From: Rufibacter tibetensis
Lineage (GTDB): Bacteria; Bacteroidota; Bacteroidia; Cytophagales; Hymenobacteraceae
Assembly (NCBI RefSeq): GCF_001310085.1
Contig: NZ_CP012643.1
Coordinates: 4,966,001 to 5,030,000 of the forward strand
DNA length: 64,000 nt
Reading direction: 5' to 3'
Part shown: piece by piece, positions 3,441 through 63,686 of the stretch
Numbering within the stretch: position 1 is the stretch's first letter
Layout: every line of letters starts with the position of its first letter
Position numbers and translations under genes: made by a program
The notes under the pieces: generated by a model
Told to the model about the DNA's origin: nothing
The model's database searches: none
What the model saw: the letters and a program-made list of their open reading frames with translations, nothing else

Positions 3441-3475
3441 CTTTAAAGGGTGTTATCAAAAAATGCTGCCAAAAC
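3441..3475. repeat. Solitary copy of the 35-base palindrome family
   Basis: A 35-base imperfect palindrome reading CTTTAAAGGG, TGTTATC, then AAAAAATGCTGCC and AAAAC. It matches the family pattern in both ends and centre but with several mismatches. It lies immediately next to the terminator at 3408-3438, between two convergent genes. Confidence 0.45.
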
Positions 3476-3504
3476 GAATGTGGACTTCCACAACCCGCTT
3501 TGGT

Positions 3505-5076
3505 TTATTTCTTCAACACAACGCTGCTATAACCCGGAAGTGTCAAGCTGGCCCCTTTTTGCTTCGTCCCTTTGTTGTTTTTAAAGTGCACCTTACTGTA
3601 AGAGGTTAAGTTCTCAGGAAGATTAACACTTACCTCATTCTTGGTAAGGTTGTGCAGGACCAGCAAGGACTCATCTTCGTGGGTTCTCACAAATGCGCTC
3701 ACCCCAGAATTACCTAACTGGAGCGGCTCCAGGGTACCATATGTCAAGGCTTTGCTATTGCTCCTTAAGCCAATCATTGTTTTATAATGATTGAAGAGCG
3801 AGTTCTTGTCCTTGATCTGAGCAGCGGCTGGAGCTACAGAACCTTCAGGGTTGTATTTGGGCTGCATCCAGGTGGTGCGGCTTTTGTCTTTGGCTTTCAC
3901 GTCCCATATGAACGGTTCTCTGATGTTTTCATCTGGCTTCATTCCTTTCATACCTATCTCTTCGCCGTAATACAGGTAAGGAGAACCCGGTAAGGTCATG
4001 AGCAGCGCCGTGGCCATTTTCGCTTTATTCATATCTCCGTTTACGGCACTCATAATGCGGTTTTGGTCATGGTTGGTCAGGAAGGTGGCGTCTACATAGT
4101 CTGGGTTCACGTTCTGGTAGAAGTCTCTTATCTTCTTATGGTTGGCCACCAGGTCACCAGCATTTTCCTCATTCACAGCTTTGGTAATGGCAAAGCCCAT
4201 GTCAAAGTTAAAAAGGGCTGGTAAGCCTCGCAGGTAAGGTCCAACAATCTCGGCTGGTGCCCACACCTCTCCTACCAGGTATACGTCTTTGTTATCCTTT
4301 TTCATCTCGTTCCGGAAGTACACCCACCAGTTGTGGTTGTCATGGGGTCTTTCATCTGGAAAGATATGGCGGGCGGCATCTAATCGGAAACCGTCTACGC
4401 CTACCTCGGTAAACCAAAAACGGCCCATCTTGAAGATTTCTTCGCGAAGCTTAGGGCTATCAAAGTTCAGGTCGGGCATGCCGCTGTAGAAGTAGCCGTA
4501 GTAGAGGTAATCACTTCCTTCTACTTTGTGCCAATGGCGGGTATTGTCTGAGTCAGCTCCGGTGGGTCTGCCCTCTTTCTGGGTTTGTGGGTCGTTTTTG
4601 TGCGTCCAGACATAGTAGTCACGGTACGGGCTGTTCTCATTTTTCACGGCATCAAGAAACCATGGGTGTTTGTCTGAGGAATGGTTGATCACCATATCCA
4701 TCACCACTTTAATGTTGCGTTTGTGCGCCTGGTTGATGAACTCCTTGAAATCTGCCATGGTCCCGTAGTCGGGGTGAATGCCGTAGTAATCGGTCACATC
4801 GTACTTATGGTAAGAAGGTGATGGATTCATGGGCATCAGCCACACCGCTTCCACCCCGAGGTTCTTTAGGTAGTCAAGTTTAGAGGTCATTCCCTTGATA
4901 TCCCCAATGCCATCTCCGTTTGAATCAGCGAAGGACTGCACGAAGATTTCATAGGTGATTCCACGAGGCCATTCGCTTACTTTTTTATCCTGCGCTTGCG
5001 CAACCTCAATGTTTCCTAAGGTACTGCAGAAAAGCATGGACGACAGGAAAAGACGGGCTAAATTCTTCTTTTTCAT
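3505..5076 (-). CDS. Secreted GH13 alpha-amylase
   Basis: Starch or malto-oligosaccharide hydrolase of 523 residues. A Sec signal peptide with a basic N-terminus and hydrophobic core ends near AQAQD (residue 30), giving a periplasmic or secreted enzyme. The GH13 catalytic barrel shows region I MDMVINH (N131, H132), region II GFRLDAARH with nucleophile D233, region III LVGEVW with acid/base E270, and region IV LTNHDQNR with D337. The early DGIGDIKG stretch is the family calcium/domain signature seen in oligo-glucosidase and amylase subfamilies. A short C-terminal beta domain ends at LPGYSSVVLKK. It lies 186 bp downstream of the GH97 gene and the same way round as the sus genes, so it probably acts on imported oligosaccharides in the periplasm, as SusA does. 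A subfamily other than amylase (for example neopullulanase-like) is possible. Confidence 0.9.
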   Translation of the reverse strand: MKKKNLARLFLSSMLFCSTLGNIEVAQAQDKKVSEWPRGITYEIFVQSFADSNGDGIGDIKGMTSKLDYLKNLGVEAVWLMPMNPSPSYHKYDVTDYYGIHPDYGTMADFKEFINQAHKRNIKVVMDMVINHSSDKHPWFLDAVKNENSPYRDYYVWTHKNDPQTQKEGRPTGADSDNTRHWHKVEGSDYLYYGYFYSGMPDLNFDSPKLREEIFKMGRFWFTEVGVDGFRLDAARHIFPDERPHDNHNWWVYFRNEMKKDNKDVYLVGEVWAPAEIVGPYLRGLPALFNFDMGFAITKAVNEENAGDLVANHKKIRDFYQNVNPDYVDATFLTNHDQNRIMSAVNGDMNKAKMATALLMTLPGSPYLYYGEEIGMKGMKPDENIREPFIWDVKAKDKSRTTWMQPKYNPEGSVAPAAAQIKDKNSLFNHYKTMIGLRSNSKALTYGTLEPLQLGNSGVSAFVRTHEDESLLVLHNLTKNEVSVNLPENLTSYSKVHFKNNKGTKQKGASLTLPGYSSVVLKK

Positions 5077-5262
5077 GAAGGTATAAAGAATGTAAAACCT
5101 GAAATAGCCTTGAAAAGGATCAACTAAACGGGGCTATCCCGCTCTCTCTCCTTAACCAAGGGCCTACCTCAAGTTCATTGATGAAAAAAATTCTTAATTC
5201 GGCGTACCTCTATTTTCCAGCTGATTTTTGGAAAACAGAGGTAAAACTATGGCGTTGGTAGC

Positions 5263-7473
<2,211 letters not shown>

Positions 7474-7709: not shown

Positions 7710-7734
7710 GGCATTATGTGAGCTTTACCTACTC

Positions 7735-14820: not shown

Positions 14821-14887
14821 AATAATAAAGAGCCCCGTTTCAGGACTGATTTTATATATCAGTCCTGAAACGGGGCTCTTTATTATT
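14821..14887. terminator. 30-bp perfect terminator hairpin, contains palindrome-family core
   Basis: Arms of 30 bases (14821-14850 and 14858-14887) pair without a mismatch around a 7-base loop. The outer half is AATAATAAAGAGCCCC and the inner half is a 35-base family copy (14837-14871, GTTTCAGGACTG and complement). It lies between the convergent lacI and GNAT genes and can act in both directions. Confidence 0.85.
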
Positions 14888-14992
14888 ACAAAGGATTAAG
14901 TACTTATTTACCTCTATTCTTTTAGTGTGGTTTTCTGAAAGCACCCTTAGAACTCTCTTAGACTTGGTTTTTAATCTCTGCTTCAGACCAGT

Positions 14993-17926: not shown

Positions 17927-17961
17927 GTTTTAAGGATGTTTTCAAAGAACAAGGACCAAAG
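17927..17961. repeat. Solitary copy of the 35-base palindrome family
   Basis: GTTTTAAGGATGTTTTC forms a near-consensus left arm, and the right arm (AAAGAACAAGGACCAAAG) is degenerate. It lies between gldA and gldF. Confidence 0.45.
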
Positions 17962-18017: not shown

Positions 18018-18052
18018 TTTTTAGCCTCATTTTTCAAAAATAAGCCTGAAAC
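18018..18052. repeat. Copy of the 35-base palindrome family just after gldA
   Basis: On the minus strand it reads GTTTCAGGCTTATTTTT then GAAAAATGAGGCTAAAAA. The centre pairs well and the outer parts partly. It starts 8 bases past the gldA stop and may weaken read-through into gldF. Confidence 0.5.
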
Positions 18053-19863: not shown

Positions 19864-19898
19864 GATTAGGGCCTTTTTCTGGAAAGGAAGACTTAAAC
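19864..19898. repeat. Copy of the 35-base palindrome family after the second SDR
   Basis: GATTAGGGCC, then TTTTTCTGGAAAGG and AAGACTTAAAC. It shares the TTTCTGGAAAG centre and the TTAGGG/TAAAC ends with the copy at 45375-45410. It lies 45 bp past the SDR stop on the minus strand. Confidence 0.45.
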
Positions 19899-22342: not shown

Positions 22343-22377
22343 GTTTTAGTCTTCTTTTAAGAAAACTAGCTTAAAAC
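22343..22377. repeat. Copy of the 35-base palindrome family directly after mlaF
   Basis: GTTTTAGTCTTCTTTT, AA, then GAAAACTAGCTTAAAAC. It begins 2 bases after the mlaF stop codon. The outer six and central five bases pair and the middle is mismatched. Confidence 0.6.
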
Positions 22378-22433: not shown

Positions 22434-22509
22434 ATCATAAACAAACTGCCCCTTTTTTTAGCCCTTCTTTGAAGAAACAGGCTAAAAAAAGGGGCAGTTT
22501 GTTTATGAT
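22434..22509. terminator. 30-bp perfect bidirectional terminator between mlaF and nupC
   Basis: Arms 22434-22463 and 22480-22509 are exact complements of 30 bases. They carry ACTGCCCC-TTTTTTT on one side and A7-GGGGCAGT on the other, so U-tracts lie inside the stem. The inner 34 bases (22455-22488, TTTTTAGCC to GGCTAAAAA) resemble the palindrome family. The two flanking genes converge. Confidence 0.85.
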
Positions 22510-27307: not shown

Positions 27308-27358
27308 GAGGGCGCGTTTAGCAATCTTTTTTAGAAAACACTGTCTAAACGGGCCCTC
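27308..27358. terminator. Hairpin with palindrome-family core between convergent genes
   Basis: Outer arms GAGGGCGC and GGGCCCTC (one mismatch) enclose a 35-base family copy at 27316-27350 (GTTTAG to CTAAAC with a T-rich/A-rich centre). It separates the pseudogene from the convergent outer-membrane protein gene. Confidence 0.7.
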
Positions 27359-28747: not shown

Positions 28748-29125
28748 AGTGGCTTTAAATCCGACTCACGGCAAAGATACAGCAAACAAATGGAAGCTTA
28801 GGTACCTACAGCATCTTTCTACCTTTCTTCAACCAAGGTATTTAGACATATGATTAGGGCAAATTAAGAAAATGATAGCCTTCAGTACAGGGTTTAGTTT
28901 TAAATTGGAATATATTACAAACCACTGCATTACAATTTTTCCGGTGGAAGGCCAAGAAGTGAACCATGGCTTTGTGGTGCACCTGGTAAACCAAAAAAGG
29001 CTTCTTTGCAAAGAGCTGGAATAAGCTATAATTAAAAAAGAGGGGTCTGGTTTTTTGGTAGTTTTCTTGAAAAAACACCTAAACCAGGCCCCTCTTTTAA
29101 GAAAAATGCTGCCTGAGAGTAAAAT
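28748..29125. other. 378-bp spacer without a supported gene
   Basis: Only short unsupported reading frames without homology or a good start are visible. It must hold the promoter of the gene starting at 28747, and it contains the long hairpin at 29036-29098 that ends the gene upstream on the minus strand. Confidence 0.6.
29036..29098. terminator. Terminator hairpin with palindrome-family core
   Basis: AAAAGAGGGGTCTGGTTT pairs with AAACCAGGCCCCTCTTTT (one G-T pair). The inner 35 bases (29050-29084) are a family copy with the typical GTTTTC centre. It lies 27 bp past the stop of the outer-membrane protein gene on the minus strand. Confidence 0.8.
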
Positions 29126-31320: not shown

Positions 31321-31435
31321 GACACTGACCGACCAGCAAAACTGAACTAAAAGAAAGTAGTGGCTTTTAGCTTTAATATGCTGAATGGATTCAGTTCAAT
31401 ACCAAAAGTTTTATCCCTGTTTTTGCAAAACAGCC

Positions 31436-31499
31436 AGAAAATGCCTAGACTTCTCTTTCAAACTGATTCAGTTTTGAAAGAGAAGTCTAGGCATTTTCT
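31436..31499. terminator. 27-bp perfect hairpin upstream of the ThuA gene
   Basis: 31436-31462 and 31473-31499 are exact complements over 27 bases, around a 10-base loop. Since the next gene starts at 31524 on the same strand, the hairpin probably terminates nat transcription just ahead of the ThuA promoter or leader. Confidence 0.75.
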
Positions 31500-32264: not shown

Positions 32265-32278
32265 CAACTTTTCATATT

Positions 32279-32340
32279 AGCTTCAAACAGAAAGACCCGT
32301 TATGCTCACTTTTGCTTAACGGACCTTTCTGTTTGAAGCT
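32279..32340. terminator. Bidirectional terminator between ThuA and DUF892 genes
   Basis: AGCTTCAAACAGAAAG and its complement pair, extended by CCGTTA/TAACGG after two mismatches (32279-32302 with 32317-32340). The two flanking genes converge. Confidence 0.8.
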
Positions 32341-32350
32341 ATGTTTGTTC

Positions 32351-33011: not shown

Positions 33012-33064
33012 CAGCCGTCTTTTAGGTGCCGTTTTCATAAAACAACACCTAAAGGACGGCTGAA
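33012..33064. terminator. Terminator hairpin with palindrome-family core
   Basis: TCAGCCGTCTTTTAGGTG and CACCTAAAGGACGGCTGA pair with one G-T. The inner part is a 34-base family copy (33021-33054). It lies 28 bp past the stop of the T9SS amylase on the minus strand. Confidence 0.8.
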
Positions 33065-38157: not shown

Positions 38158-38209
38158 AAAGGAGTCGTTTAAGGGTTGTTTTTAAAAACAGCCCTTAAAC
38201 GACTCCTTT
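38158..38209. terminator. Terminator hairpin after glgB with palindrome-family core
   Basis: AAAGGAGTC / GACTCCTTT flank a 34-base family copy at 38167-38200 (GTTTAAGGGTTG, TTTTTAAAAA, CAGCCCTTAAAC, one G-T pair). Followed by TTTT, so it looks like a normal intrinsic terminator whose loop is replaced by the palindrome. Confidence 0.85.
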
Positions 38210-38603: not shown

Positions 38604-38650
38604 GTTTATCTATCTAATCTTAAAGACAGTTACTTATGTCATCATCTACG

Positions 38651-38684
38651 CTTTAGGCCAGTTTTCCAGAAACTAACCCCAAAC
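38651..38684. repeat. Degenerate copy of the palindrome family after the GlgA-like gene
   Basis: CTTTAGGCCAGTTTTC then CAGAAACTAACCCCAAAC, 34 bases, 13 bases past the stop codon at 38697. Confidence 0.4.
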
Positions 38685-40292: not shown

Positions 40293-42607
40293 ATGATCAA
40301 TGACCTGGGGGTCAAACACGAGGAGTTCTTCGCGGGTACTGTTCTCCAGGTCCATTCAACTGACAATTGCACTCTATTTACCTGTGATAACCGGGTGGGC
40401 TTGAAAGTGGAAGCTGTCACGCAGCACATTCTACGGTTTAAGTTTAGCACGGACGGAACCTTCTCCCGGGAGTTTTCCTATGCCCTCTCCCCTTCCCGCC
40501 CCCAGGAAAAGGTGAAGCTGAAAATAAAAGAACTGGCAGACCATTACCGGCTTACTACCAAGGAGCTAATTTGCACTGTTTCCAAAAACGGCCTGATCAC
40601 ACGTATTCTAGACAAGTCTGGCAATATCCTGAACGAAGACGAGAAAGGTTTTCATTGGGAAGAGCACAAAGACTATGGCGGCGATATTGTGAAGATGAGC
40701 AAAGCCGTGCAGCCGCAGGAGTTCTTTTATGGCTTGGGCGACAAAGCCGACAACATGAACCTGCGGGGCAAGCGCTTTGAGAATTGGGGTTCAGATACCT
40801 ATGGCTACAAAATAGGCACCGATCCGCTGTACAAGAACATCAACTTTTATATGGGGTTGCACCGCCGCAACGCCTACGGCATCTTCTTTGACAACACTTT
40901 CAGGGCTTTCTTTGATTTCGCGAGTGAGCGCAAGGAAGTAACCAGCTTCTGGGCGCAGGGCGGCACCATGGAGTATTACTTTATCTATGGCCCTTCCCTC
41001 ACGCAGGTGGTGCAACAATATACCACAAAGACCTGGCCAAAGGCTTCAGAGACCGTTCTATCCCCTGTGATGCCCTGTACCTGGACATAGACTACATGGA
41101 AGGTTTCCGGTGCTTTACCTGGAGCAAAAGCCATTTCCCTGAACCCCATCGCATGGTGCAGGAACTGAAGGAAGACGGTTTCAAAACGGTGGTCATCATT
41201 GACCCGGGCATCAAAATTGACCATGACTATTGGGTGTACCAGGAAGGCATCAAAAATGATTATTTCTGCCGCCGCGCCGATGGTCCTTTGTACAAGGGAA
41301 CTGTGTGGCCGGGACTGTGCCACTTCCCGGACTATACCCGTGAAGAGGTGCGCACCTGGTGGGCTGGTCTGTTTAAGGGCCTTATTCAGGAAACCGGCGT
41401 TAAAGGCGTCTGGAATGACATGAACGAACCGGCGGTGTTTGAGATTGGCACTTTCCCCAATGACGTGCGCCACCATTATGACGGCGACCCTGGCAGTCAC
41501 CGCAAGGCTCATAACATCTACGGCATGCAGATGGCCCGCGCCACTTATGAAGGTGTAAAGAACTTCTCTTATCCAGACCGCCCCTTTACCATAACCCGCT
41601 CAGGCTACGCCGGGGTGCAGCGTTTTGCTTCTGGCTGGACCGGTGATAACATTGCCTCCTGGGATCACCTTTGGCTGGCCAACATTCAGTGTCAGCGCCT
41701 TAGTATTTCAGGAATGTCTTTTATTGGCTCTGACATAGGCGGGTTTATAAAATCACCAGACGGCGAGCTGTACATCCGGTGGCTACAGTTAGGGATCTTC
41801 CATCCGTTCTGCCGCACCCACTCCTCGGGTGACCACGGAGACCAGGAGCCCTGGTCTTTTGGGGAGCCGTACACAGCATTGGCCCGCAAATTCATTGAGC
41901 TACGCTATCAGCTTCTGCCTTACATGTACTCTACCTTCTGGCAGTACACTACCCAAGGAACTCCCATGCTGCGGCCCTTGGCTTTTGTGGACCAGACAGA
42001 TCCTGATTGCTACCACCGTATGGCAGAATTTTGCTTAGGCGATAATCTTTTGGTGTGCCCCATTACGCAACCGGGGGTAGACGGCAGAATCTTATACCTG
42101 CCGCAAGGAAACTGGTACAACTTCTGGACTGGTCTTATGGAAGCCGGTAAACGAGAAGTATGGGCAGATGCCCCACTAGACAAGGTACCTATGTTCATCA
42201 AAGCCGGAGCCGTGGTTCCCTTCTACCCTGTGCAGCAGTACGTGGGGGAACTGGCAGCACCCCAGGTGGCGCTGCATGTGTACTACAACCAGGGCACCTG
42301 CGTGAGCGAACTATATGAAGACGGTGGCGAAGGCTACGGGTACACAGAGGGCAATTTTCTGCACAAAGTTTTCCGGACGGAAGGCAGCTTAACCCTGTTC
42401 ACCCTTACCCAGGAAAGAAAAGGCGACGGTCAGGATGGTTACCGGTACTACGCTATTTTCATTCACGGCTTACAAACACATACAGCCAAAATCATAGTAG
42501 ATGAACAGGAAGTTACCTGGGAAAATGTAGCCGCTACCAACCTTATCTTTGTTTCCGTACCCAATGATTTTACGCTACTTCAGGTAATTCCTTCACCTAT
42601 CGTATAA
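40293..42607 (+). pseudogene. GH31 alpha-glucosidase split by a frameshifting deletion
   Basis: Two adjoining frames together encode an almost complete GH31 enzyme. 40293-41090 gives the N-terminal beta-sandwich to IYGPSLTQVVQQYTTK. The continuation is in another frame, from about 41030 (DLAKGFRDRSIPCDALYLDIDYMEGF) to 42607, with the catalytic Asp in GVWNDMNEPAVF, GDNIASWDHL, and the acid/base region of HSSGDHGD. About 30 residues normally found between them (the TG-PELPPLWALG and RWSYYP stretch lining the active site) are absent, and the deletion is not a multiple of three. The nucleotides on each side read smoothly, so the break is either a real mutation or an assembly error. Uninterrupted, the enzyme would be about 800 residues and would hydrolyse alpha-glucosides, alongside the glycogen genes. 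Confidence 0.85.
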
Positions 42608-42613
42608 TCAACA

Positions 42614-42669
42614 TTAAGCGGCCCGTTTAGGAGGTGATTAGTAAAACACCTCCTAAACGGGCCGCTTAA
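42614..42669. terminator. 23-bp perfect terminator hairpin with palindrome-family core
   Basis: TTAAGCGGCCC and complement enclose a 34-base family copy (42625-42658, GTTTAGGAGGTG to CACCTCCTAAAC). It is followed by AATTATTTTTTT, a good T-run for plus-strand termination, and it also serves the convergent GT3 gene. Confidence 0.9.
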
Positions 42670-44510: not shown

Positions 44511-44935
44511 GGAGGGTCAGTTTAAGGGTATTTTACTCAAATTAGAGTAAAAGGGATATAGCAGAAAGTAATTTGTTTTACACTTTTTCAATTAAGGGCA
44601 CTCGTGAATTTTGCCTCCAATTGATAATCCTCTCACCCTCAGACCCCAAGCAAAATTCCCGTTTTTCAAATCTAAAACTTTTTTGCAGAATTCATACCCC
44701 CAGCTTAAATCAGCCACCAGATAAATGAATTTATAAGCGTTTTCACACCTGTTTTGCAAGGGTTTTACTAAAACCTGTAAAGGAACATATTCTGGTTTAT
44801 TGGCAAAACTCCCTAGGTTCTTCAGAATTTTTCAACTCCTGGCACAACCAAAATTTAAATTTGGTCTATACTTCAGGCAAACGCCGTAACCGGCTTTATC
44901 CCTGATTTCTTTAAAACACACCTAAAACAAACACT
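44511..44935. other. 425-bp spacer between divergent GT3 and thioesterase genes
   Basis: AT-rich, without a supported gene. It starts with an inverted repeat TTTTACTC/GAGTAAAA near 44530-44551 next to the GT3 start and holds a palindrome-family-like stretch at 44894-44928 just before the thioesterase gene. Both promoters must be here but I could not define them. Confidence 0.6.
44894..44928. repeat. Half-conserved palindrome-family copy upstream of the thioesterase
   Basis: On the minus strand GTTTTAGGTGTGTTTT is a full left arm. The right arm (AAAGAAATCAGGGATAAAG) is degenerate. It ends 7 bases before the ATG, so it would lie in the mRNA leader. Confidence 0.4.
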
Positions 44936-45369: not shown

Positions 45370-45415
45370 TTTCTGTTTAGGGACTACTTTCTGGAAAGTA
45401 GCCCCTAAACAGAAA
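45370..45415. terminator. Terminator hairpin after the thioesterase with palindrome-family core
   Basis: TTTCT/AGAAA outer arms and a 36-base family copy (45375-45410, GTTTAGGGACTACTTT, CTGG, AAAGTAGCCCCTAAAC with one mismatch). The copy makes up nearly the whole hairpin. Confidence 0.85.
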
Positions 45416-47118: not shown

Positions 47119-47166
47119 AAAGCAGAAAGCCCCCGGAAGACTGAACTTCCGGGGGCTTTCTGCTTT
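47119..47166. terminator. 21-bp perfect bidirectional terminator
   Basis: AAAGCAGAAAGCCCCCGGAAG and its complement surround a 6-base loop (ACTGAA), between the convergent M28 and alpha/beta hydrolase genes. It lacks the palindrome-family core. Confidence 0.9.
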
Positions 47167-48243: not shown

Positions 48244-48293
48244 AGGCCCTGTTTTAAGGCAGATTTAATAAAAATTGCTTCAAAACAGGGCCT
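48244..48293. terminator. Hairpin with palindrome-family core after the M1 peptidase
   Basis: AGGCCCT/AGGGCCT arms enclose a 36-base family copy (48251-48286). It lies about 55 bp past the stop of the minus-strand M1 peptidase gene. Confidence 0.75.
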
Positions 48294-48348: not shown

Positions 48349-50004
48349 TTACTGCACCCGTTTCTGAGTCACATAGAAGTTTGGATCTACTTTAATCCCG
48401 GTGGCACCAGCAGCAAGGGTAGCTTTTTTCCAGGTGGTGGAGACCGGTTGTAACCACGTTTCTTTTCCAGCTACCAAAACTTTTACCGGCAGGTTAAAGC
48501 CCTTGACGACATTGTTCCAGCGGTACGAGAGGGTTTTTCCTTCCACCTTATACTCCAGTTCAGGAATACGAACATCGCGGAGGTACTGGTCAAAGAAAGC
48601 TTTCAGGTCCTTTCCGGTTTGTTGACTGATGTAGTTTTCAATCTGGGCGGTTGTCACCGTCTGGTGGTAAAACTCTTTGTTCAGGCCACGCAGTAGTTTC
48701 CGCCATTTCTCGTCATCATTCACCACTTGCCGAAGGGTGTGCAGCATGTTGCCGCCTTTGGGGTACATGTCACCGGAGCCGCTGAAGTTTACATTATATA
48801 TCCCGATGATGGGCCGGTCATTTCTGATTCCGCGACGGGTACCGATCACGTACTCACTTGCGGCTTTTTTGCCATGGTAATATTCCACAAACAAGCTCTC
48901 TGAGTAGTTGGTAAAACTCTCATGAATCCACATGTCAGCGTTGTCTTTGTAAGTGATGTTGTTGGCAAACCATTCATGCCCACTTTCGTGGATGATGATG
49001 AAGTCGAACTTCAGGCCCCAACCCGTGCCGCTGAGGTCCCGACCCAGGTAGCCGTTCTGGTATTTGTTTCCGTAGGTCACTGAGCTCTGGTGTTCCATGC
49101 CCAGATACGGCACCTCCACCAATTTATAGCTGTCTTCATAGAAAGGGTACGGCCCAAACCAGTGCTCAAAGGCTTTCAGCATCTGGGGTACTTGCTTGAA
49201 CTGCTCTTTGGCTTTGGCCAGGTTCTCGCGCAGCACATAATAATTGCAATCCAGCTTGCCTTTTTCGCCGGCGTAGGTTTCTGAGAAGTTCACGTAATCG
49301 GCAATATTCACATTCACGCCGTAGTTGTTGATGGGATTTGTAACCGCCCAATGGAAGGTGTGGGTGCCGTCTGCGTGCTGCTCTAGTTTGCGCAAGCGCC
49401 CATTAGAGACATCAACCAGGTCTTTCGGCACCGTTACCCTAATCATCATGCTGTCGGGCTCATCGTACATGTGGTCTTTGCAGGGCCAAAACAAGCTTGC
49501 GCCGTCGCCTTGCACCGAGGTGGCAATGAAAGGTTTACCGTTGCTGTCTTTCTTCCAGGTAACGCCCCCGCTCCACGGCGGATTGGTGCTTACCTGGGGT
49601 TTGCCGCCGTAGGTTACTTCCACGGTCTGCAGGGTACCAGGCACTTGTTTGGCAGCTAGCTGAATAAACCAGGCATTCCCATCCTGCTTCACCCTCAGGT
49701 TCTGCCCGTTCTGCCGAACCTGCTCAATGCGCATGGGCGGCTGCAAATCAATCTGCATCACCTGGTGGGGCTTCAGCACTTTGTAGCGCACCAGGTTCAC
49801 GCCCTGCATTGTACTGTCTTGCGGGTTCACTTTCATGCTCAGGTCATAATGCACCAAATCCCACCAGGCCCGCTCCGGCGTGATAGAGCCCCTCAGTGTG
49901 TCTTGCCGGGTAAAGGTAGGAATAGATTGGGCCTGGGCATCTATTCCCACCACCAGTAAAAGGAAGGAAAGCAGACCCAACAGAGAAGAAAACCGATGTA
50001 GCAT
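48349..50004 (-). CDS. M1-family zinc metallopeptidase, exported
   Basis: Aminopeptidase-type enzyme of 551 residues with a signal peptide ending GIDAQAQ. Zinc site: H339-E-S-G-H343 with E362 in IHESFTNYSE. The exopeptidase-type motif GMEHQ is at 302-306 (in place of GAMEN). It is shorter than typical PepN and lacks the C-terminal helical domain, ending with KVLVAGKETWLQPVST after a beta domain. This resembles the compact M1 family found in many Bacteroidota. Probably periplasmic or surface-located. Substrate not defined. Confidence 0.93.
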   Translation of the reverse strand: MLHRFSSLLGLLSFLLLVVGIDAQAQSIPTFTRQDTLRGSITPERAWWDLVHYDLSMKVNPQDSTMQGVNLVRYKVLKPHQVMQIDLQPPMRIEQVRQNGQNLRVKQDGNAWFIQLAAKQVPGTLQTVEVTYGGKPQVSTNPPWSGGVTWKKDSNGKPFIATSVQGDGASLFWPCKDHMYDEPDSMMIRVTVPKDLVDVSNGRLRKLEQHADGTHTFHWAVTNPINNYGVNVNIADYVNFSETYAGEKGKLDCNYYVLRENLAKAKEQFKQVPQMLKAFEHWFGPYPFYEDSYKLVEVPYLGMEHQSSVTYGNKYQNGYLGRDLSGTGWGLKFDFIIIHESGHEWFANNITYKDNADMWIHESFTNYSESLFVEYYHGKKAASEYVIGTRRGIRNDRPIIGIYNVNFSGSGDMYPKGGNMLHTLRQVVNDDEKWRKLLRGLNKEFYHQTVTTAQIENYISQQTGKDLKAFFDQYLRDVRIPELEYKVEGKTLSYRWNNVVKGFNLPVKVLVAGKETWLQPVSTTWKKATLAAGATGIKVDPNFYVTQKRVQ

Positions 50005-50038
50005 TTTTAACCTGTTTTTGAAAATGTAACCTAAAAAA
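50004..50038. repeat. Palindrome-family copy overlapping the M1 peptidase start
   Basis: On the minus strand it reads TTTTTTAGGTTACATTTTC then AAAAACAGGTTAAAAA, directly abutting the ATG at 50004, so it would be the last part of the mRNA leader. The arms pair in the centre and at the ends. Confidence 0.5.
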
Positions 50039-50184: not shown

Positions 50185-50219
50185 TTTTCAAGCTGCTTTT
50201 CTAAAAACATACCTGAAAC
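50185..50219. repeat. Palindrome-family copy after the GH5-like gene
   Basis: On the minus strand GTTTCAGGTATGTTTTTAG then AAAAGCAGCTTGAAAA, 35 bases, 25 bases past the stop. Centre and ends pair well. Confidence 0.6.
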
Positions 50220-56502: not shown

Positions 56503-57264
56503 TCACTTTACTTCTCTCTTGGTTTCTTTTAATTGATTGTAAATTATGGGAATAAAAGGGGTGCTTTCTACAAAATAGCGTCTAAACAATCGCTTAGGCT
56601 CATTGGCAAAACGCCAGAACCATTCCATGCCTACTTGCCTGAAAACTTTTGGGGCTCTTTTGATAGAACCCGCCTCAAAATCAAATGAAGCGCCAATGCC
56701 CAAAGCAACATTTATATCCAATTGCGCGATGTTGTTGTACATCCACTTTTCCTGTTTAGGCGCTCCTACCCCCACAAAAAGAATATGAGGCTTCACCGCA
56801 TTGATCATTTCTACAATCTTACGGTTCTCCTGCTGGTTTTTGTCAAACCCAAATGGCGGACTATAAACGCCCACCACATTTAGACCCGGAAATTTCTTTT
56901 TCAATTCATCGGCTGCTTTCTGCGCCACTCCTTCCAGCCCACCTAAAAAGAATAACCGAAATCCCCGGTTTGCAGCATGACGGCATAGGGATGGGAATAG
57001 GTCAGAACCGGTTACCAAAGCCTTGAGGGGAGTACCTAAAACTTTAGACGCCCACACCAGCGGGTTACCGTCTGCAAGCACCAGGCCCGCCTGGTCATAA
57101 CAGCGCACAAAGTCTGGGTCTTGTTCCAGTTTTACAATGTGGTCCAGGTTGGGAGTGACCACGTAGGTTTTCTGGTTATTGACAATCATGGAATCAATGG
57201 CCATGATGGCTTCCTGCTGGGTTACGTTGTCAACATACGCCTTGCCTATTCTTACCTTTTCCAA
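56503..57264 (-). CDS. WecG/TagA/CpsF-family glycosyltransferase (GT26)
   Basis: Transferase that adds a second sugar, such as N-acetylmannosamine or its uronate, to lipid-linked GlcNAc-like acceptors, 253 residues. Family marks: KTYVVTPNLDHIVKLEQDPDF, GLVLADGNPLVWASKVLG, VTGSDLFPSLC, and VGVGAPKQEKWMYNN. The start codon is TTG at 57264 (no ATG fits well). It is 31 bases after the acetyltransferase stop and 122 bp ahead of the GH26 gene, with an AT-rich gap between. Part of the polysaccharide operon. Confidence 0.9.
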   Translation of the reverse strand: MEKVRIGKAYVDNVTQQEAIMAIDSMIVNNQKTYVVTPNLDHIVKLEQDPDFVRCYDQAGLVLADGNPLVWASKVLGTPLKALVTGSDLFPSLCRHAANRGFRLFFLGGLEGVAQKAADELKKKFPGLNVVGVYSPPFGFDKNQQENRKIVEMINAVKPHILFVGVGAPKQEKWMYNNIAQLDINVALGIGASFDFEAGSIKRAPKVFRQVGMEWFWRFANEPKRLFRRYFVESTPFIPIIYNQLKETKREVK

Positions 57265-57272: not shown

Positions 57273-57307
57273 GTTTTAGGGTTATCTTTAGAAAACTAGC
57301 TAAAAAC
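57273..57307. repeat. Palindrome-family copy overlapping a stop codon inside the operon
   Basis: GTTTTAGGGTTATCTTT, then AGAAAACTAGCTAAAAAC. It covers the last codons and stop (57296-57298) of the acetyltransferase and the space to the WecG-type start. The same AGAAAACTAGC half recurs in the copy at 22343-22377. Confidence 0.6.
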
Positions 57308-58893: not shown

Positions 58894-59772
58894 TTATTTC
58901 TTGGATGTGATTGCTTTGTTCAGGATCACAGAAGGGGTTACAGAAACAAAGGTTTTGTAAAGCCCTTTGTTTGGTACCGGCGAGGCATCTATCATAGCCT
59001 GCGTTTCCTTTTTCTTGTAGGCGGCAATACCCAACAGCACCGCGTGCTGAAACTTTTTCATATACCCTTCTGGATCAAATTGGTACAAGTCTTTTCCGTA
59101 CAGGTTAAAGTAGAAACTGAGGTACGTAAACTTGCCGGCAATAGCCTCTGTTGATTTTAACCGAAGAGTTTTGGTGAGGTTATCCGTTCTTTCAAGGTCT
59201 ATCCAGGTAATAGTTTCGGGCACTACCATCTGCGGTTCTGTATGTTTGATGATCCTCAGCCAATTCAGGTTCTCATAGGCCCTGAACTGCTCAAAAAAAG
59301 GAAACTGCAATAACACTTCCCGCTTGATAACGTGCGTAAAATCACCATATACATGCTCCGTAAGCCACTCTTTGTAACTGGTAGTATAAGGCGCAGAAGC
59401 TACCTTGGTTTGGTTAGAAGAGACGTAAAACAGGAAGTGTTGAATATGCGGATTTTCATTAACGTAAGTCACCACCTTGTCAAACCCCTGCGGAAAGAGT
59501 TTATCATCACTATCCAGAAACAGAATGTAGTCACCGGTTGCTCTTTCTATGCCGCGGTTACGGGTATAATTCACGCCTCTGTTCCCCGGGTTCTTCAACA
59601 CCTGCAGGTTCTTGATCTGCATGGTTTGCAGCAACTCATAAGACCCATCAGTAGAGCCATCGTCTACGGCAATTACCTCATAGTTTTCATATGCCGTATC
59701 AATGCTTTCTAGGCAGCGAGGCAAATCAGCTTTGCGGTTATACACCGGAATAACGATGGATATCTTCTTCAT
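58894..59772 (-). CDS. Glycosyltransferase family 2
   Basis: GT-A inverting glycosyltransferase of 292 residues. It starts KISIVIPVYNRKADLPRCLES, with the nucleotide-sugar pocket VIAVDDGSTDGSYELL and RNRGIERATGDYILFLDSDD (DxD). The ATG lies 35 bases before the end of the wzy-like gene, so the two genes overlap in different frames. It adds a sugar to the polysaccharide repeat. Donor and linkage are unknown. Confidence 0.9.
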   Translation of the reverse strand: MKKISIVIPVYNRKADLPRCLESIDTAYENYEVIAVDDGSTDGSYELLQTMQIKNLQVLKNPGNRGVNYTRNRGIERATGDYILFLDSDDKLFPQGFDKVVTYVNENPHIQHFLFYVSSNQTKVASAPYTTSYKEWLTEHVYGDFTHVIKREVLLQFPFFEQFRAYENLNWLRIIKHTEPQMVVPETITWIDLERTDNLTKTLRLKSTEAIAGKFTYLSFYFNLYGKDLYQFDPEGYMKKFQHAVLLGIAAYKKKETQAMIDASPVPNKGLYKTFVSVTPSVILNKAITSKK

Positions 59773-60982
59773 AGAGCGGCTCTTCTTCAGTCTGATATGA
59801 ATACGCGTGAAAGCCTACTATAGAGGCTAGTGTGATGATAGAAATGGCCGTGGTATTAGTGGCCATAGAGTTGTTCCCGGAAGCAATCAAGAAGATCACA
59901 AACAGGAGTATGAGCTTAACCGGAGTATCCAGGTGGTGGAACAGGCTTAAGAGGAAAAAGAACAAGGCTACCCCTAAGCAACCGGTGAGAACATAGCCAT
60001 ATTTGAAAACCCAGATAATCCAGAAGTTCTCAATGATATCTACCTTCTCCAGGTACATGGCGGCTAGAATCTTATCTTCCCCAATGCCCCACATGAGGTC
60101 ACTGGGTGTGAAATGCCGGAACATGTCAAATACGCGGGTTCGTACATCGGCACTGTCATCATCAAACTTTGAACTGGCGAAAATACGCTCGCCAAAAGGA
60201 GTGCTCACCAATACGAACACACAAAGGGCAATCATCACAAGAAAGAGCACCAGGTAGTTGAAGAACTTACCAGCTGCTTCTTCACTGCCGTAGTTTTTCA
60301 AATCAAAATACAGCAGGAACGGAAAAGCCATCAGCACCCCGGCCAGGGCGGTTCGTCCCCCAAACGCAAAAATGGCCATGATCCCCAGCCCCAGGAAGAA
60401 GAACTTTTTAAGGGTAGTTTCTGAAATAATGACGAAAAACAGCGTCAGGAAACCCACTACCAGTGAATTGTTGAGCGGGTGCCCCAGGAGTGCGTACGAC
60501 CGGAATGATTCAAAAACCGCTTCTACGGAGGGTCTTAAAATAATGGTACTTAAGCCCCTTTCCACAATGGCCAGCGAGCAGTTTATGATAAAGAATACTT
60601 TCAGCCAGTAAAGTAACTTCTCCTTGAACTCATCAGGCTTATCCTGTAGGTAATGGATCAAGAGAACCGGAGCGAAAAGCGTATCCAGAATAAAGAAGTT
60701 GGCTTTTGATTTGCCTAAAGTGATGGAGTAAATAAATACCAACAACACCACAATTCCGAAGGCACGCTCAGTGAAGCTGTCAATGTTATAGATGGAGTTC
60801 TTCTTGATGAATTCCACTCCCCAAAGCCCAAAAAGTAAATACGTAGCAGGGTGCAACCGGAAGATAGGACCACTGGTAGGATCAGACTGCGGGTAGTGCA
60901 AAACATCCAGCACATTCTGGCCCAAAAACAGGAACAGAACCAGCAGGAATGGCAGTAGCGCTATGGTGTTTGATCTTTCCAA
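59738..60982 (-). CDS. O-antigen/exopolysaccharide polymerase, Wzy-like
   Basis: Integral membrane protein of 414 residues with about eleven hydrophobic segments and a large loop (ISETTLKKF and following) typical of Wzy polymerases. Little sequence identity is conserved in this family, so the call rests on topology, length and position between the flippase and glycosyltransferases. A stop codon lies directly upstream of the TTG used here, so TTG or a later codon is the start. The acidic, soluble C-terminus (TEEEPLYEEDIHRYSGV) extends over the GT2 start. Polymerises lipid-linked repeats in the periplasm. Confidence 0.75.
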   Translation of the reverse strand: MERSNTIALLPFLLVLFLFLGQNVLDVLHYPQSDPTSGPIFRLHPATYLLFGLWGVEFIKKNSIYNIDSFTERAFGIVVLLVFIYSITLGKSKANFFILDTLFAPVLLIHYLQDKPDEFKEKLLYWLKVFFIINCSLAIVERGLSTIILRPSVEAVFESFRSYALLGHPLNNSLVVGFLTLFFVIISETTLKKFFFLGLGIMAIFAFGGRTALAGVLMAFPFLLYFDLKNYGSEEAAGKFFNYLVLFLVMIALCVFVLVSTPFGERIFASSKFDDDSADVRTRVFDMFRHFTPSDLMWGIGEDKILAAMYLEKVDIIENFWIIWVFKYGYVLTGCLGVALFFFLLSLFHHLDTPVKLILLFVIFLIASGNNSMATNTTAISIITLASIVGFHAYSYQTEEEPLYEEDIHRYSGV

Positions 60983-61012
60983 TCAGTCTTTTTTATAAAG
61001 TTTCGCCGCAGG

Positions 61013-62353
61013 TTATTTCTTTGATCGCTTTTCCTTAAAGTTCAGAATTAAGGGCTGTACATACCCGTACACCGATGAAAAGTAAAAATACCGTATCCCT
61101 AACACCTGGGTTTTGCTTCGGTACAGGTACACCCACATTAGCAAAGCAATGGAGGTTTCAGTCAGCAACCAAGCCCAGGCCGCTCCTATGTAGCTGTAGC
61201 TTTGGGCCAGCCAAAAGTTTAACCCTAACCCAATTACCCCACCCGCCGCTATGATGAGGGTGTAGGGTTTGTCCATTTTGAGGTTCACCATGGCCTGCAC
61301 ACCCATCAAGTTACTAAGCCCCATCACCATTGGTATAAAGCACAGAATCCGCAGCACGGTAATAGATGGCCTAAATTCCTCTCCATAGAAAATGGTCACA
61401 ATATAAGGGGCCAGAAGCCATACGCCTGCTCCCATCAACGCCGTGAGGTACACAATAAAAGGAGCCGTCATTTTAATGCGCTCGATGCCTTTCTCTCGGC
61501 TAATGCCAAAGCTTTCTCCAATATAGGGGAAGAGGGACATGCCCAATGGAATGGTCACAATGGTGTGCATAATGATCACCAGCCGCCAACTGGCCGAAAA
61601 GAAGGCTACAGCCTCACTGCTTTGTACTAACCCCAAGACCAGGGTGCTGGCGTAGGTGTACACATTGATGGAAACAAAGGAGAAGAAGATGACCTTTTCG
61701 TTCCATAAATGGCGCAGCACTTTCTTAAGGGGCACGGCATACAACTTGATTTTATACCGCTTTACCGCCCACCAAAAAGCCCCTATGCCTACTAAAATAT
61801 GCGCTACTCCAATGAAGAAAGGTTGCCAAACATAGTCTTCCCTTTCGCGCACCACAAAGAGCACCAGAATGGTAAATAGCAGCTTGGTGACAAAGTTGAA
61901 GATAGCAATGTTGTGCAGTTCCTGCATGCCCTGGTACAGCCAGTTGGGCGTGAGCACAAAGGAAAAAACTATGATGAATGAGTAAATGGCTACCTTCTTC
62001 TCACTGGCTAGCTGAGGCATAAAACTGAGCAGCGCCCAAAATAAAGCGGTAGAAACGAGGAACAACAGGATTTTAGCAAACAGAACATTATTGAAAATCA
62101 CGCTTCGGGCTTCCAGGTTGTCCTTGTCCAGGGCTACTGCTCTGGTAGCCGTTAAATCAAACCCGTAGTTGGTCAGCAGCACAAAATAAGAAACTACAAC
62201 CGAGGCAAAATTGATAACCCCAAACTTGTCTGGACCAATGATGCGCACAATGATAGGAATGGAAATAATAGGCAACACGTTGTTGGCTACCTGCAGCAAG
62301 CTCAAAGAAAAGAAGTTCTTAAATAATTTACTTTGGTTTTTAACTGCGTCCAT
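61013..62353 (-). CDS. Polysaccharide flippase, Wzx-like
   Basis: Membrane protein of 446 residues with about 12-14 hydrophobic segments. The N-terminus KNFFSLSLLQVANNVLPIISIPIIVRIIGPDKFGVINFA is typical of the oligosaccharide flippase (PST) family. It moves the undecaprenyl-linked repeat unit from the cytoplasmic to the periplasmic face. It is directly ahead of the polymerase, with a gap of 30 bases, and follows the GT4 gene by 108 bp. Confidence 0.9.
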   Translation of the reverse strand: MDAVKNQSKLFKNFFSLSLLQVANNVLPIISIPIIVRIIGPDKFGVINFASVVVSYFVLLTNYGFDLTATRAVALDKDNLEARSVIFNNVLFAKILLFLVSTALFWALLSFMPQLASEKKVAIYSFIIVFSFVLTPNWLYQGMQELHNIAIFNFVTKLLFTILVLFVVREREDYVWQPFFIGVAHILVGIGAFWWAVKRYKIKLYAVPLKKVLRHLWNEKVIFFSFVSINVYTYASTLVLGLVQSSEAVAFFSASWRLVIIMHTIVTIPLGMSLFPYIGESFGISREKGIERIKMTAPFIVYLTALMGAGVWLLAPYIVTIFYGEEFRPSITVLRILCFIPMVMGLSNLMGVQAMVNLKMDKPYTLIIAAGGVIGLGLNFWLAQSYSYIGAAWAWLLTETSIALLMWVYLYRSKTQVLGIRYFYFSSVYGYVQPLILNFKEKRSKK

Positions 62354-62461
62354 TCACCAGATTAATGTGTATGCAAAGTATAAATATGGTCTTCAATTAG
62401 TAATTGAGTGAAGGCATAAAGGTTTTAAGAAACTTCTCCCAGCCCATAGAAGCAGTTTACC

Positions 62462-63520
62462 TCAAGACCGCACCAGCCTGCGATATAAAGAAAACAGCTG
62501 CTCGTTTAACCTGGCCAGATTGTATTCTGCATCAATTTTACGTTGGTTATTTTCGGCCATCCTAATCATCTCCTGGGGGTTGGACTTTACAAAAGCAATG
62601 TGCTGGCAGAGACTCTCCACATCGCCGGGCGTTATCAGAAAACCATTCACACCTTCGGTAACCAGATCAGGAATACCTCCTACCCGTCCGCTGATGATGA
62701 TCTTACCAGCAGCCATGGCCTCCAGAATAGACATAGGCAACCCTTCGTTGTATGAGGGAAGGATCATGGTATCGGCTCTTTTAAGCCATTCCATTTTTTC
62801 TTTCTCCCCTATCCAACCCAGTACCTGTACATTGTTTTGCAAGCCTTTTTCCTGCACAATTCTGTGCACCTGCTCTATTTCCCCATCACCGGCAAGGTAA
62901 AAAACGAGGTCATGGTGGTGGTGCCTGTTGACCAGGATGTCTGCTGCTTCCAGTAGGTCATAAACACCTTTTCGTTGACCTAGCCGCCCTAGAAACAAGA
63001 ACTTAGAAAGGTTTGCGGGCATGGTATAGCAGGAAGCAAAAAACTGGGTATACACGCCATTATGTAAAACCTCTACATTCTTGTTTGAGATGTTCTTTTC
63101 AAAGAAATGCCTCCAAAACCCAGACAGCACCAGAATGCTGCTACAAAAAGAGAAGATCATCCGGATATACCACTGGGCAATAGACGAAGAGGAGTTGTAA
63201 AAGGAATCAAAATCTGCCCCGTGCACGTGCATGACCACTGGTTTGCCACGTAATTTACTGAGCAGCACAAAGAGGCTTTTCCGGTAGAAACTGGCGCCAG
63301 ATGCCACGTGAATGTGCACCAGATCCATCTTACTGGTTTTCAGAAATTCAAGGATCGCATCAAGATTTCGGGAGATCTTTTCAGAAGCGCTTCCTTCCAC
63401 ATGTGATACAATATGGGTAAACCGAACCTCAGGATTTCGGTTTTGCAACATGTCGTTGATCACCGTAGCCATTCCGCCTTTTGTCCGGGTGATACTAGGA
63501 CCTACAATGACAACCTCCAT
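62462..63520 (-). CDS. Glycosyltransferase family 4 (operon copy 2)
   Basis: GT-B retaining glycosyltransferase of 352 residues from the ATG at 63520 (in-frame TTG three codons earlier is less likely). Features: VVIVGPSITRTKGGMATVIND with the GGM donor loop, KPVVMHVHGADFDSF, VEVLHNGVYTQFF, SKFLFLGRLGQRKGVYDLLEAADIL, and the E-x7-E stretch SYNEGLPMSILEAMAAGK. First complete gene of the minus-strand operon within the window, followed by the flippase. It builds the repeat unit with the other GTs. Donor unknown. Confidence 0.9.
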   Translation of the reverse strand: MEVVIVGPSITRTKGGMATVINDMLQNRNPEVRFTHIVSHVEGSASEKISRNLDAILEFLKTSKMDLVHIHVASGASFYRKSLFVLLSKLRGKPVVMHVHGADFDSFYNSSSSIAQWYIRMIFSFCSSILVLSGFWRHFFEKNISNKNVEVLHNGVYTQFFASCYTMPANLSKFLFLGRLGQRKGVYDLLEAADILVNRHHHHDLVFYLAGDGEIEQVHRIVQEKGLQNNVQVLGWIGEKEKMEWLKRADTMILPSYNEGLPMSILEAMAAGKIIISGRVGGIPDLVTEGVNGFLITPGDVESLCQHIAFVKSNPQEMIRMAENNQRKIDAEYNLARLNEQLFSLYRRLVRS

Positions 63521-63650
63521 AGACTTCAACAGAAAAGAAATTTAATAAAATTTTAATATTCTGTGCTTCTTAATGGCAATACCTACTTTTCTGACCTTGT
63601 GTTGCAGCTAATACCTTAAGCAGAGTTCCTCAACAGCAGTCCTGTAACAC

Positions 63651-63686
63651 GTTTTTAGCCTGTTCTCAATAAAAAAGGCTGAAATC
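63651..63686. repeat. Palindrome-family copy downstream of the Wzc-type gene
   Basis: GTTTTTAGCCTGTTCTC then AATAAAAAAGGCTGAAATC, 36 bases, 38 bases past the Wzc stop on the minus strand. AGCC/GGCT and the ends pair. It lies between the kinase and the first GT4. Confidence 0.5.

What the first reader, a model, noticed from the sequence alone, without database searches (positions are those of the whole stretch)
3441..63686. Interspersed 34-36-base palindrome family, about twenty copies in 64 kb
Seen directly: stretches of nearly constant length share GTTTnAGG (or GTTTTTAGCC) at one end, TGTTTT-like T-rich and AAAACA-like A-rich halves in the middle, and the complement CCTnAAAC at the other end. 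Copies lie at 3441, 14837, 17927, 18018, 19864, 22343, 22455, 27316, 29050, 33021, 38167, 38651, 42625, 44894, 45375, 48251, 50004, 50185, 57273 and 63651. Nearly all are at gene ends and none is in a tandem array. Length is held while bases drift, which suggests selection on a structure or a spreading element. I know no named family that fits. Possible roles: a REP-like mobile palindrome, an RNA processing or decay signal, or a nucleoid-protein site.
Basis: seen in the sequence. Interest (0 to 1): 0.8.

Follow-up and report, generated by a model that had tools for sequence, protein, structure and literature searches.

The report
Species-dialect DNA tags across Rufibacter chromosomes
Chromosomes of one genus of environmental bacteria carry very many copies of a 40-base two-part DNA motif that keeps its places between species, even inside genes, while its spelling follows the dialect of each genome, which suggests an unknown protein that reads it.

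Summary
The family is real. In 464 kb of the window's genome (Rufibacter-like) 148 copies score >=10; shuffles give 0-1, and 1.40 Mb from other genera gives 2. All 16 same-genus genomes carry it; a fixed pattern finds none in 43 other relatives. The 'hairpin selected for structure' reading fails for most copies: without an outer stem the arms covary in at most one of seven genomes. A REP/RAYT-like mobile element fits poorly. Positions are old: a copy lies ~5-11 bp past the gldA stop in 16 of 16 genomes (15 by scan, one by eye). Three sites inside sbcC and comEC hold their codon position in 15-16 of 16 genomes, with no 12-residue insertion. Y1-flanking spacers are not enriched. Spelling differs between genomes ('dialects'), and these in-gene sites follow it. 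The second contig is depleted. Best reading: a bipartite double-stranded DNA recognition site read by an unidentified, co-evolving factor, probably marking or organising the own chromosome. It evolves like DNA uptake sequences, but no pilus ATPase is detected. Seven literature searches found no description.

The parts
3441..3475 (.). weak or decayed E copy directly beside an ordinary hairpin 3406-3440
   Evidence: score 7.4; hairpin
5212..5247 (.).
   Evidence: score 15.6
14837..14871 (.). E copy at the apex of a longer terminator-like stem, convergent spacer
   Evidence: score 43.0; arms 15/16, outer 8/8; 67-bp hairpin
14919..14953 (.).
   Evidence: score 12.8
17927..17961 (.). E copy between the gldA and gldF homologues (second in that spacer)
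   Evidence: score 11.0
18018..18052 (.). E copy 8 bp past the gldA stop codon; the same position holds a copy in 16 of 16 Rufibacter genomes (15 by scan, G015 by eye)
   Evidence: score 31.4; orthologous copies
19864..19898 (.). E copy; the orthologous spacer (with any gene inside it) holds a hit in 14 of 16 genomes
   Evidence: score 12.7
22343..22377 (.). E copy in the nupC / 21531 convergent spacer (hit in 16 of 16 genomes)
   Evidence: score 28.0
22455..22489 (.). E copy, same convergent spacer, inside a 76-bp hairpin
   Evidence: score 16.3
27316..27350 (.). E copy, weak
   Evidence: covariance model 20.2 bits, E 0.018; below 6 in the profile scan
29050..29085 (.). E copy
   Evidence: score 12.3
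31408..31442 (.).
   Evidence: score 27.2
33020..33054 (.). E copy in a 53-bp terminator-like hairpin
   Evidence: score 22.7; outer 8/8
38167..38200 (.). E copy in a 52-bp terminator-like hairpin
   Evidence: score 54.2; outer 8/8
38650..38684 (.). E copy
   Evidence: score 15.6
42625..42658 (.). E copy in a 56-bp terminator-like hairpin
   Evidence: score 26.8; outer 8/8
44893..44928 (.). E copy
   Evidence: score 27.9
45375..45410 (.). E copy, 7 bp past a stop codon, in a 46-bp hairpin
   Evidence: score 39.2
48251..48286 (.). E copy in a 50-bp hairpin
   Evidence: score 16.7
50003..50038 (.). E copy, weak
   Evidence: score 10.1
50185..50219 (.). E copy
   Evidence: score 28.0
56646..56681 (.). 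E-like site inside ORF 56503-57264
   Evidence: score 15.3
57273..57307 (.). E copy
   Evidence: score 19.1
63651..63686 (.). E copy
   Evidence: score 17.3

Best explanation
The element ('E', about 40 bp, YC-GTTTnnGGnCTGTTTT-nnnn-AAAACAGnCCnnAAAC-GR) is a double-stranded DNA recognition site made of two inverted half-sites. SHOWN: it is a dense chromosomal motif of the genus; the positions followed are old; spelling differs between genomes (G007 and G013 share one); three in-gene sites sit in place without a 12-residue insertion and together match their own genome's dialect; arms do not covary in most copies; the 120 kb examined of the second contig is nearly free of it. INFERRED: a dimeric, sequence-specific protein encoded in each genome reads both half-sites, and its specificity has changed between species, carrying about 1,500-2,500 sites with it (extrapolated from the seven deeply sampled genomes). 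The sites are probably kept by a drive or by selection for self-recognition of the species' own chromosome (recombination or uptake bias, as with DNA uptake sequences). They accumulate where they do least harm: past stop codons, and inside variable stretches of genes. Some copies have been co-opted as the tip of intrinsic terminators. Rough split of belief: DNA-level recognition site 0.75; of that, self-recognition/drive 0.45 and chromosome organisation 0.30.
For: Dense and clean: with dialect profiles 174 sites >=14 in 420 kb of G013 (163 of 175 sites >=8 score >=30) and 142 in 420 kb of G006 (121 of 147 score >=30); one shuffle of each gives 0; 1.40 Mb of other genera gives 0 (G013 profile) and 0 at >=14 (G006 profile; 2 at >=8). 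All 16 Rufibacter genomes carry 25-57 per 100 kb (10-464 kb sampled each); none of 43 other genomes matches the fixed pattern. Old positions: past the gldA stop in 16 of 16 (15 by scan); two convergent spacers 16 of 16 and 11 of 11 scorable, the 110-bp divergent spacer 0 of 16. In-gene sites: sbcC 15 of 16 at scan score >=4 (12 at >=10; none in G011), comEC aa ~75 15 of 16 (none in G012) and comEC aa ~590 16 of 16, without a 12-residue gap against 5 and 6 other-genus homologues. At comEC-590 the amino acids are less conserved (0.56) than the protein mean (0.77). Dialect tracking: 2 of 5040 label permutations reach the observed match for the three in-gene sites together, 2 of 5040 with self rows removed and 1 of 720 without G013; other windows of the same genes are calibrated, 60 of 991 and 115 of 1792 passing at 5%. 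Arms: copies with at most 4 of 8 outer pairs have z 0.2, 2.1, -0.7, -0.4, -1.0, 0.0, 0.5 in seven genomes. Second contig C2: 2 hits in 120 kb; C2+C3 4 vs 40.7 expected. In-gene sites lie far from intergenic ones in G013 (median 2380 vs 1179 bp, p 0.0018).
Against: No binding protein was found; the factor is pure inference. Taken over all intergenic copies, arms do show some covariation in G000 (z 2.2), G004 (2.7) and G006 (2.5-2.8), in G000 and G006 carried by the outer-stem copies, in G004 not only; one search shows excess pairing at positions 5-7 in several genomes. Single half-sites show a small excess at high score (>=18: 4 vs 0.3 and 1 vs 0.3). Even spacing is seen in G006 (4 of 500 null draws) but not in G013 (322 of 500), and the in-gene distance effect is not significant in G006 (p 0.12) or in the pooled earlier sample (p 0.17). 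comEC-75 tracks dialect only moderately (39-44 of 5040; own profile best in 2 of 7) and G012 lacks it. A further in-gene hit, in a ~260-aa gene, is in 3 of 6 full-length homologues and may be chance. 282 near-identical copies in G005 could also come from copying. Only three in-gene sites were followed. No type II/IV pilus ATPase over cut-off (0 of 16), so a classical uptake-sequence machine is unlikely. Relatedness of genomes is not fully removed from the permutation test.
Confidence: 0.45

Rival explanations
1. Chromosome-organising site: E is bound by a nucleoid or chromosome-architecture protein (loop anchor, segregation or supercoiling site) at about 2.4-3-kb intervals. The dialects reflect slow co-evolution of that protein with its sites.
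For: Dense sites, a depleted second contig, little arm covariation outside outer-stem copies, four T/A tracts per site, even spacing in G006, and in-gene sites in stretches poor in other sites in G013.
Against: Spacing is not even in G013. It would be unusual for a host-useful protein to change the spelling of well over a thousand sites within one genus without a drive (inference). No protein identified.
Confidence: 0.3
2. REP/REPIN-like mobile palindrome copied by a Y1 (RAYT) or other transposase, homogenised within each genome by copying or conversion.
For: High copy number, intergenic bias, genome-specific subtypes, 282 copies within one mismatch of one palindrome in G005; Y1 genes in 15 of 16 genomes.
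Against: G007 has no Y1 match but 45 E per 100 kb; Y1-flanking spacers 29 of 55 with E vs 403 of 791 overall; gldA position shared by 16 of 16; no 12-residue insertion at three in-gene sites; flanks of 24 near-identical G005 copies share no sequence beyond a few bases; the second contig is depleted. Gain or loss at intergenic sites could not be tested.
Confidence: 0.13
3. RNA hairpin: a genus-specific transcription terminator or mRNA 3'-end stabiliser.
For: Bias to convergent and tandem spacers, often soon after stop codons; about 10% of intergenic copies have an outer stem of at least 6 of 8 pairs (15 of 134, 11 of 117); weak covariation in G004 without an outer stem (z 2.1).
Against: No covariation without an outer stem in six of seven genomes; in-gene copies conserved in place; hairpins without E also exist at gene ends, e.g. 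window 47119-47166; no strong U-tract after E in 247 tandem copies.
Confidence: 0.07

Closest known systems
DNA uptake sequences / uptake signal sequences (DUS of Neisseriaceae, USS of Pasteurellaceae)
   Same: Very many copies; species 'dialects' (PMC3630211, found passages incl. abstract); [quoted passage not shown] abstract).
   Different: E is ~40 bp and a two-half-site inverted unit with little excess of single half-sites. No pilus ATPase over cut-off in the genus. Uptake was not tested.
REP / REPIN elements with RAYT (TnpA-REP) transposases
   Same: High-copy, mostly extragenic inverted repeats with lineage-specific spelling (PMC3116915, found passages).
   Different: No enrichment beside Y1 genes, one genome without a Y1 match, positions shared genus-wide, in-gene sites without a 12-residue insertion.
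USS- or DUS-cored intrinsic terminators
   Same: Some E copies form the tip of a terminator-like stem. H. influenzae terminators are often built of two inverted USS (PMC5217627, found passages).
   Different: This holds for about 10% of intergenic copies by the outer-stem measure.
Chromosome-organising palindromes (matS, parS, Noc and SlmA sites; recalled, no call)
   Same: Chromosomal, palindromic, protein-read (recalled).
   Different: E is far denser than these (recalled) and differs in spelling between species of one genus.

Membership tests
REP/REPIN-RAYT | The repeat flanks the RAYT gene | tested here: not met
   29 of 55 Y1-flanking spacers hold E vs 403 of 791 spacers overall; 30 of 45 Y1 matches had loci
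REP/REPIN-RAYT | A RAYT is present in genomes that hold the repeat | tested here: inconclusive
   Y1 match in 15 of 16 genomes; none in G007, which has 45 E per 100 kb; recent loss possible
REP/REPIN-RAYT | Copies arise by insertion (gain/loss of a unit) | tested here: inconclusive
   No 12-residue insertion at three in-gene sites; intergenic copies could not be tested, the genomes being too diverged
REP/REPIN-RAYT | Conserved tetranucleotide tag at one end (GTAG/CGTC type; PMC3733652, title and start of abstract in listings only) | tested here: not met
   Outside GTTT...AAAC only a short symmetric YC/GR flank is conserved, up to ~5 bases in G012
Intrinsic terminator | Compensatory pairing of the stem | tested here: not met
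   Copies without an outer stem: z 0.2, 2.1, -0.7, -0.4, -1.0, 0.0, 0.5 in G000, G004, G005, G007, G012, G006, G013 and -2.7 / +1.1 in the 420-kb sets of G013 / G006; a terminator-like subset with outer stem exists
Intrinsic terminator | U-tract directly after the stem | tested here: not met
   T only 0.27-0.39 at +4 to +14 in 247 tandem copies; the subset with outer stems was not scored apart
DUS/USS | Motif hugely over-represented with species dialects | tested here: met
DUS/USS | Enriched in the inherited chromosome, depleted in acquired DNA | tested here: inconclusive
   Contig C2 2 hits in 120 kb; C2+C3 4 vs 40.7 expected (127.5 of 242.9 kb examined); largest G006 gap is a GC 0.41 stretch with glycosyltransferases and a Wzy-type ligase, but the largest G013 gap is not clearly foreign
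DUS/USS | A single half-site suffices and is common | tested here: not met
   Singles outside E >=14: 6 vs 3.6 and 3 vs 3.6 expected; >=18: 4 vs 0.3 and 1 vs 0.3, against 174 and 142 full sites
DUS/USS | Type IV pilus uptake machine | tested here: not met
   PF00437 over cut-off in 0 of 16 genomes (8 of 16 have weak matches below it), 13 of 14 controls over it; comEC present in 16 of 16
DUS/USS | Tagged DNA is taken up better | not testable with these tools
   needs a transformation assay
Nucleoid/architecture protein site | A protein binds it in vivo | not testable with these tools
   no candidate protein identified

The most novel reading that the evidence does not exclude
A self-recognition code for whole bacterial chromosomes in a phylum where my searches found none described: a rapidly evolving DNA-binding factor reads ~40-bp bipartite tags spaced every ~2.4-3 kb and drives their spread and re-spelling by point changes, even through protein-coding sequence. 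It would separate species genetically and mark plasmids and islands as foreign, without type IV pili.
Probability: 0.3. Interest if true: 0.93.

Novelty: new variant of a known kind. Interest (0 to 1): 0.75.

Why it matters
If a trans-acting factor re-spells well over a thousand chromosomal sites within one genus, including sites inside sbcC and comEC, then DNA-level constraint is shaping proteins, and there is a dense possible self/non-self marker on the chromosome. The dialects give a direct handle: genomes with different spellings should carry one protein whose DNA-reading residues co-vary with them. That makes the old question of drive versus function for dispersed bacterial repeats testable in another phylum. 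It also warns that intergenic palindromes called REPs or terminators may be protein-binding tags.

Tried and rejected
Rfam scan of the window: 0 families at gathering score. RNA-hairpin reading: rejected for most copies. Against that, (copies selected only by conserved columns, seven genomes) shows little excess pairing at positions 9-11 but excess at positions 5-7 in several genomes, e.g. G004 position 6 (15 of 36 varied copies paired, 7.2 expected) and G005 position 7 (8 of 18, 1.9 expected). RAYT/Y1: see membership test. 'Burst of identical copies' in G005: the two central bases vary and flanks of the 24 loci seen share only a few bases beside E, so a strict dialect explains it as well as copying; not settled. 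The in-gene hit in the ~260-aa gene: treated as possible chance. Spacing tests gave mixed results. Palindromes at the gldA 3' end of other genera are other sequences. Literature: seven searches of the open-access library gave no description of this family in Rufibacter or its relatives; subscription papers are not held. Papers: PMC3630211, PMC2397512, PMC5217627 and PMC3116915 seen as found passages only; PMC3733652 seen only in search listings (title and start of abstract).

Limits: genes were called by a longest-ORF rule, not a trained caller. Profiles were trained on hits of the same genomes; the rows of the followed in-gene sites were removed (8 rows, i.e. 4 sites on both strands). Consensus spellings rest on 2-8 strong copies for the nine shallowly sampled genomes. 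In one search the gldG|lacI spacer is scorable in 11 of 16 (gene match missing in 5), and six genomes lacked a nupC match, for which the 900 bp (or less, at a contig end) before the next gene were used. Three of the four 'empty' spacers are too short or overlap (10 bp, overlap, mostly ~40 bp), so only the divergent ~110-bp spacer is a telling negative. The windows tested as control did not include the E sites themselves. The scan assumes a 4-base spacer, so copies with another spacer are left out or scored out of register.
Full report
What was checked. The window is bases 4,966,001-5,030,000 of a 5.17-Mb contig. Its GldA is 93% identical to Rufibacter latericius and 92% to R. immobilis, with Pontibacter next at 65-70%. 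All 20 listed places hold a copy. With a profile-plus-pairing scan, 148 copies score >=10 in the window plus 20 evenly spaced 20-kb stretches (464 kb); three dinucleotide shuffles give 0, 0 and 1, the reversed sequence 1. In 78 loci from other genera (1,403,814 bases) the same scan gives 2.

Distribution among genomes. A fixed pattern with <=2 mismatches matched 16 of 16 same-genus genomes (4 to 560 places) and 0 of 43 others, 21 of the family and 22 of the order. The number found depends on spelling: with the tolerant scan all 16 genomes carry 25-57 copies per 100 kb (10 to 464 kb examined each). Among the seven deeply sampled genomes the consensus differs: GTTTAGGGGCTG in G005, GTTTTGGGCCTG in G006, GTTTTTGGCCTG in both G007 and G013, GTTTTCGGGCTCAT in G012, and a looser form in G000 and G004. 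Shared are GTTT, GG, CT and TTT on each half, with pyrimidine-C before and G-purine after.

Positions are old. Downstream of gldA a copy starts about 5-11 bp past the stop codon in 16 of 16 genomes; 15 are scan hits, in G015 it is visible in the sequence but below the threshold. These genomes are only about 70-86% identical over gldA-gldG. Of eight neighbouring spacers, four hold a hit in nearly every scorable genome (nupC|21531 16/16, 19943-18991 14/16, gldA-gldF 16/16, gldG|lacI 11/11) and four almost never (1/16, 0/16, 0/16, 0/16). Of these four, three are too short or overlap in most genomes; the divergent one, about 110 bp, is the telling negative. In 19943-18991 some genomes carry a gene in the spacer and three of the hits are inside it. 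Within these loci, copies of one genome resemble each other more than chance (0 of 300 permutations), and copies at one locus slightly (1 of 300).

In-gene copies. Over all sampled genomes 46 hits lie deep inside ORFs of >=150 aa against 531 elsewhere. Three were followed across the genus. In sbcC the site is a scan hit (>=4) in the aligned codon block in 15 of 16 genomes, >=10 in 12; G011 has none. In comEC one site is at residue ~75 (15 of 16 hits, 9 to 49; none in G012) and one at residue ~590 (16 of 16, 15 to 46). Homologues from other genera (5 for sbcC, 6 for comEC) show no E hit (sbcC: in the aligned block; comEC: in the gene, >=8) and no 12-residue gap, only differences of 1-5 residues. 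At comEC-590 the 14 residues are less conserved than the protein mean (0.56 vs 0.77); at comEC-75 about the same (0.73). At comEC-590 the DNA motif is thus better kept than the peptide. A fourth in-gene hit, in a ~260-aa gene, is in 3 of 6 full-length homologues, also without an indel, and may be chance.

Dialect tracking inside genes. For the seven genomes with enough data, each in-gene site was scored with all seven genome profiles. Label permutations reaching the observed match: sbcC 1 of 5040, comEC-75 39, comEC-590 4, all three 2. After removing the sites themselves from the profiles: 1, 44, 4 and 2 of 5040, and 1 of 720 without G013; the own profile is best in 5, 2 and 5 of 7, 12 of 21 in all. 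Control: the same test on 991 and 1792 other windows of the two genes passes at the 5% level in 6.1% and 6.4%, and 3 of 2783 reach <=5 of 5040, so the test is roughly calibrated.

Not a hairpin, in the main. In the 420-kb sets of G013 and G006, pairing between arms was compared with shuffled partners: intergenic z -1.4 and +2.8; in-gene 0.0 and -2.4; copies with at most 4 of 8 outer pairs -2.7 and +1.1; copies with at least 6 of 8 (15 of 134, 11 of 117) +1.4 and +3.3. In the samples of all seven genomes all intergenic copies give z 2.2 (G000), 2.7 (G004), 1.0 (G005), -0.3 (G007), -0.6 (G012), 2.5 (G006), 0.7 (G013); those with at most 4 outer pairs 0.2, 2.1, -0.7, -0.4, -1.0, 0.0, 0.5. So a minority works as the tip of terminator-like stems, and most of the rest are two independent half-matches; G004 keeps a weak signal, and one search shows excess pairing at positions 5-7 in several genomes. 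Single half-sites outside E are near expectation at 12-14 bits and slightly in excess at 18 (4 vs 0.3; 1 vs 0.3).

Density, spacing and replicons. G013: 174 sites >=14 in 420 kb, 163 of 175 at >=30; G006: 142 in 420 kb, 121 of 147 at >=30. Intergenic spacing is evener than random spacers in G006 (4 of 500) but not in G013 (322 of 500). In-gene sites lie farther from intergenic ones than random coding positions in G013 (2380 vs 1179 bp, p 0.0018, n 19), not significantly in G006 (2082 vs 1386, p 0.12, n 15) nor in the pooled earlier set, measured to the nearest copy (1718 vs 1178, p 0.17, n 41). The second and third contigs of the window's genome give 4 hits in 127.5 kb (of 242.9 kb) where 40.7 are expected; two of the four are on the 7.5-kb C3, two in 120 kb of C2. 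That C2 is a plasmid is presumed, not shown. The largest gap in G006 is a GC 0.41 stretch with glycosyltransferases and a Wzy-type ligase; the largest in G013 (5 of 13 proteins looked at) is not obviously foreign.

Mobility and machinery. Y1 transposases occur in 15 of 16 genomes, none in G007, and their flanking spacers hold E no more often than others (29 of 55 vs 403 of 791). No genome has a type II/IV secretion-pilus ATPase over the Pfam cut-off, while 13 of 14 control genomes do; comEC is in 16 of 16. One viral contig of the collection carries an exact E pattern.

Interpretation. The pattern - dense, chromosomal, mostly in harmless places, fixed in position, re-spelled per genome, also by codon choice - is what DNA uptake sequences show (PMC3630211, PMC2397512, found passages). 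But the unit is a 40-bp bipartite inverted site, and the classical uptake machine was not detected. I therefore file it as a recognition site that evolves like DUS, not as a DUS. The reader protein is inferred. Chromosome organisation is the main rival.

Noticed in passing
L018-L048, ~100 bp past the gldA stop: Some Pontibacter, Hymenobacter and Spirosoma homologues carry other palindromes at the same place (AT-rich TAATGATTAATGA type; GTCATTCCGAGCGCAGCCGAGG type; a ~70-bp near-perfect palindrome in L048), so gene-end palindromes of genus-specific sequence may be more general.
   Followed up: partly
G001, G012, G014 loci, 3' side of gldA: A second dispersed-looking sequence, TCATCCTGAAAGGA, follows E in three genomes; it was not studied.
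   Followed up: no
window E copies versus relatives: Copies in the window's own genome G000 (and G004) are looser and vary in spacer length, unlike those of G005, G006, G007 and G013; the reading factor may be lost or weakened there.
   Followed up: partly
window 40293-42607: Two adjacent ORFs; the second (41096-42607) starts at profile position 215 of an alpha-glucosidase MalA model, so the gene may be split or frameshifted. The first ORF was not searched.
   Followed up: no
G007: No Y1 transposase match in this one-contig 4.1-Mb genome, while the other 15 of the 16 have one to six.
   Followed up: partly
L314:1275-1310: One viral contig (IMGVR_UViG_2839759663_000002) of the collection carries an exact E pattern, perhaps in host flank of a prophage.
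   Followed up: no
window 47119-47166 and 32278-32341: Strong hairpins without E, showing that ordinary terminator-like stems coexist with the family.
   Followed up: no
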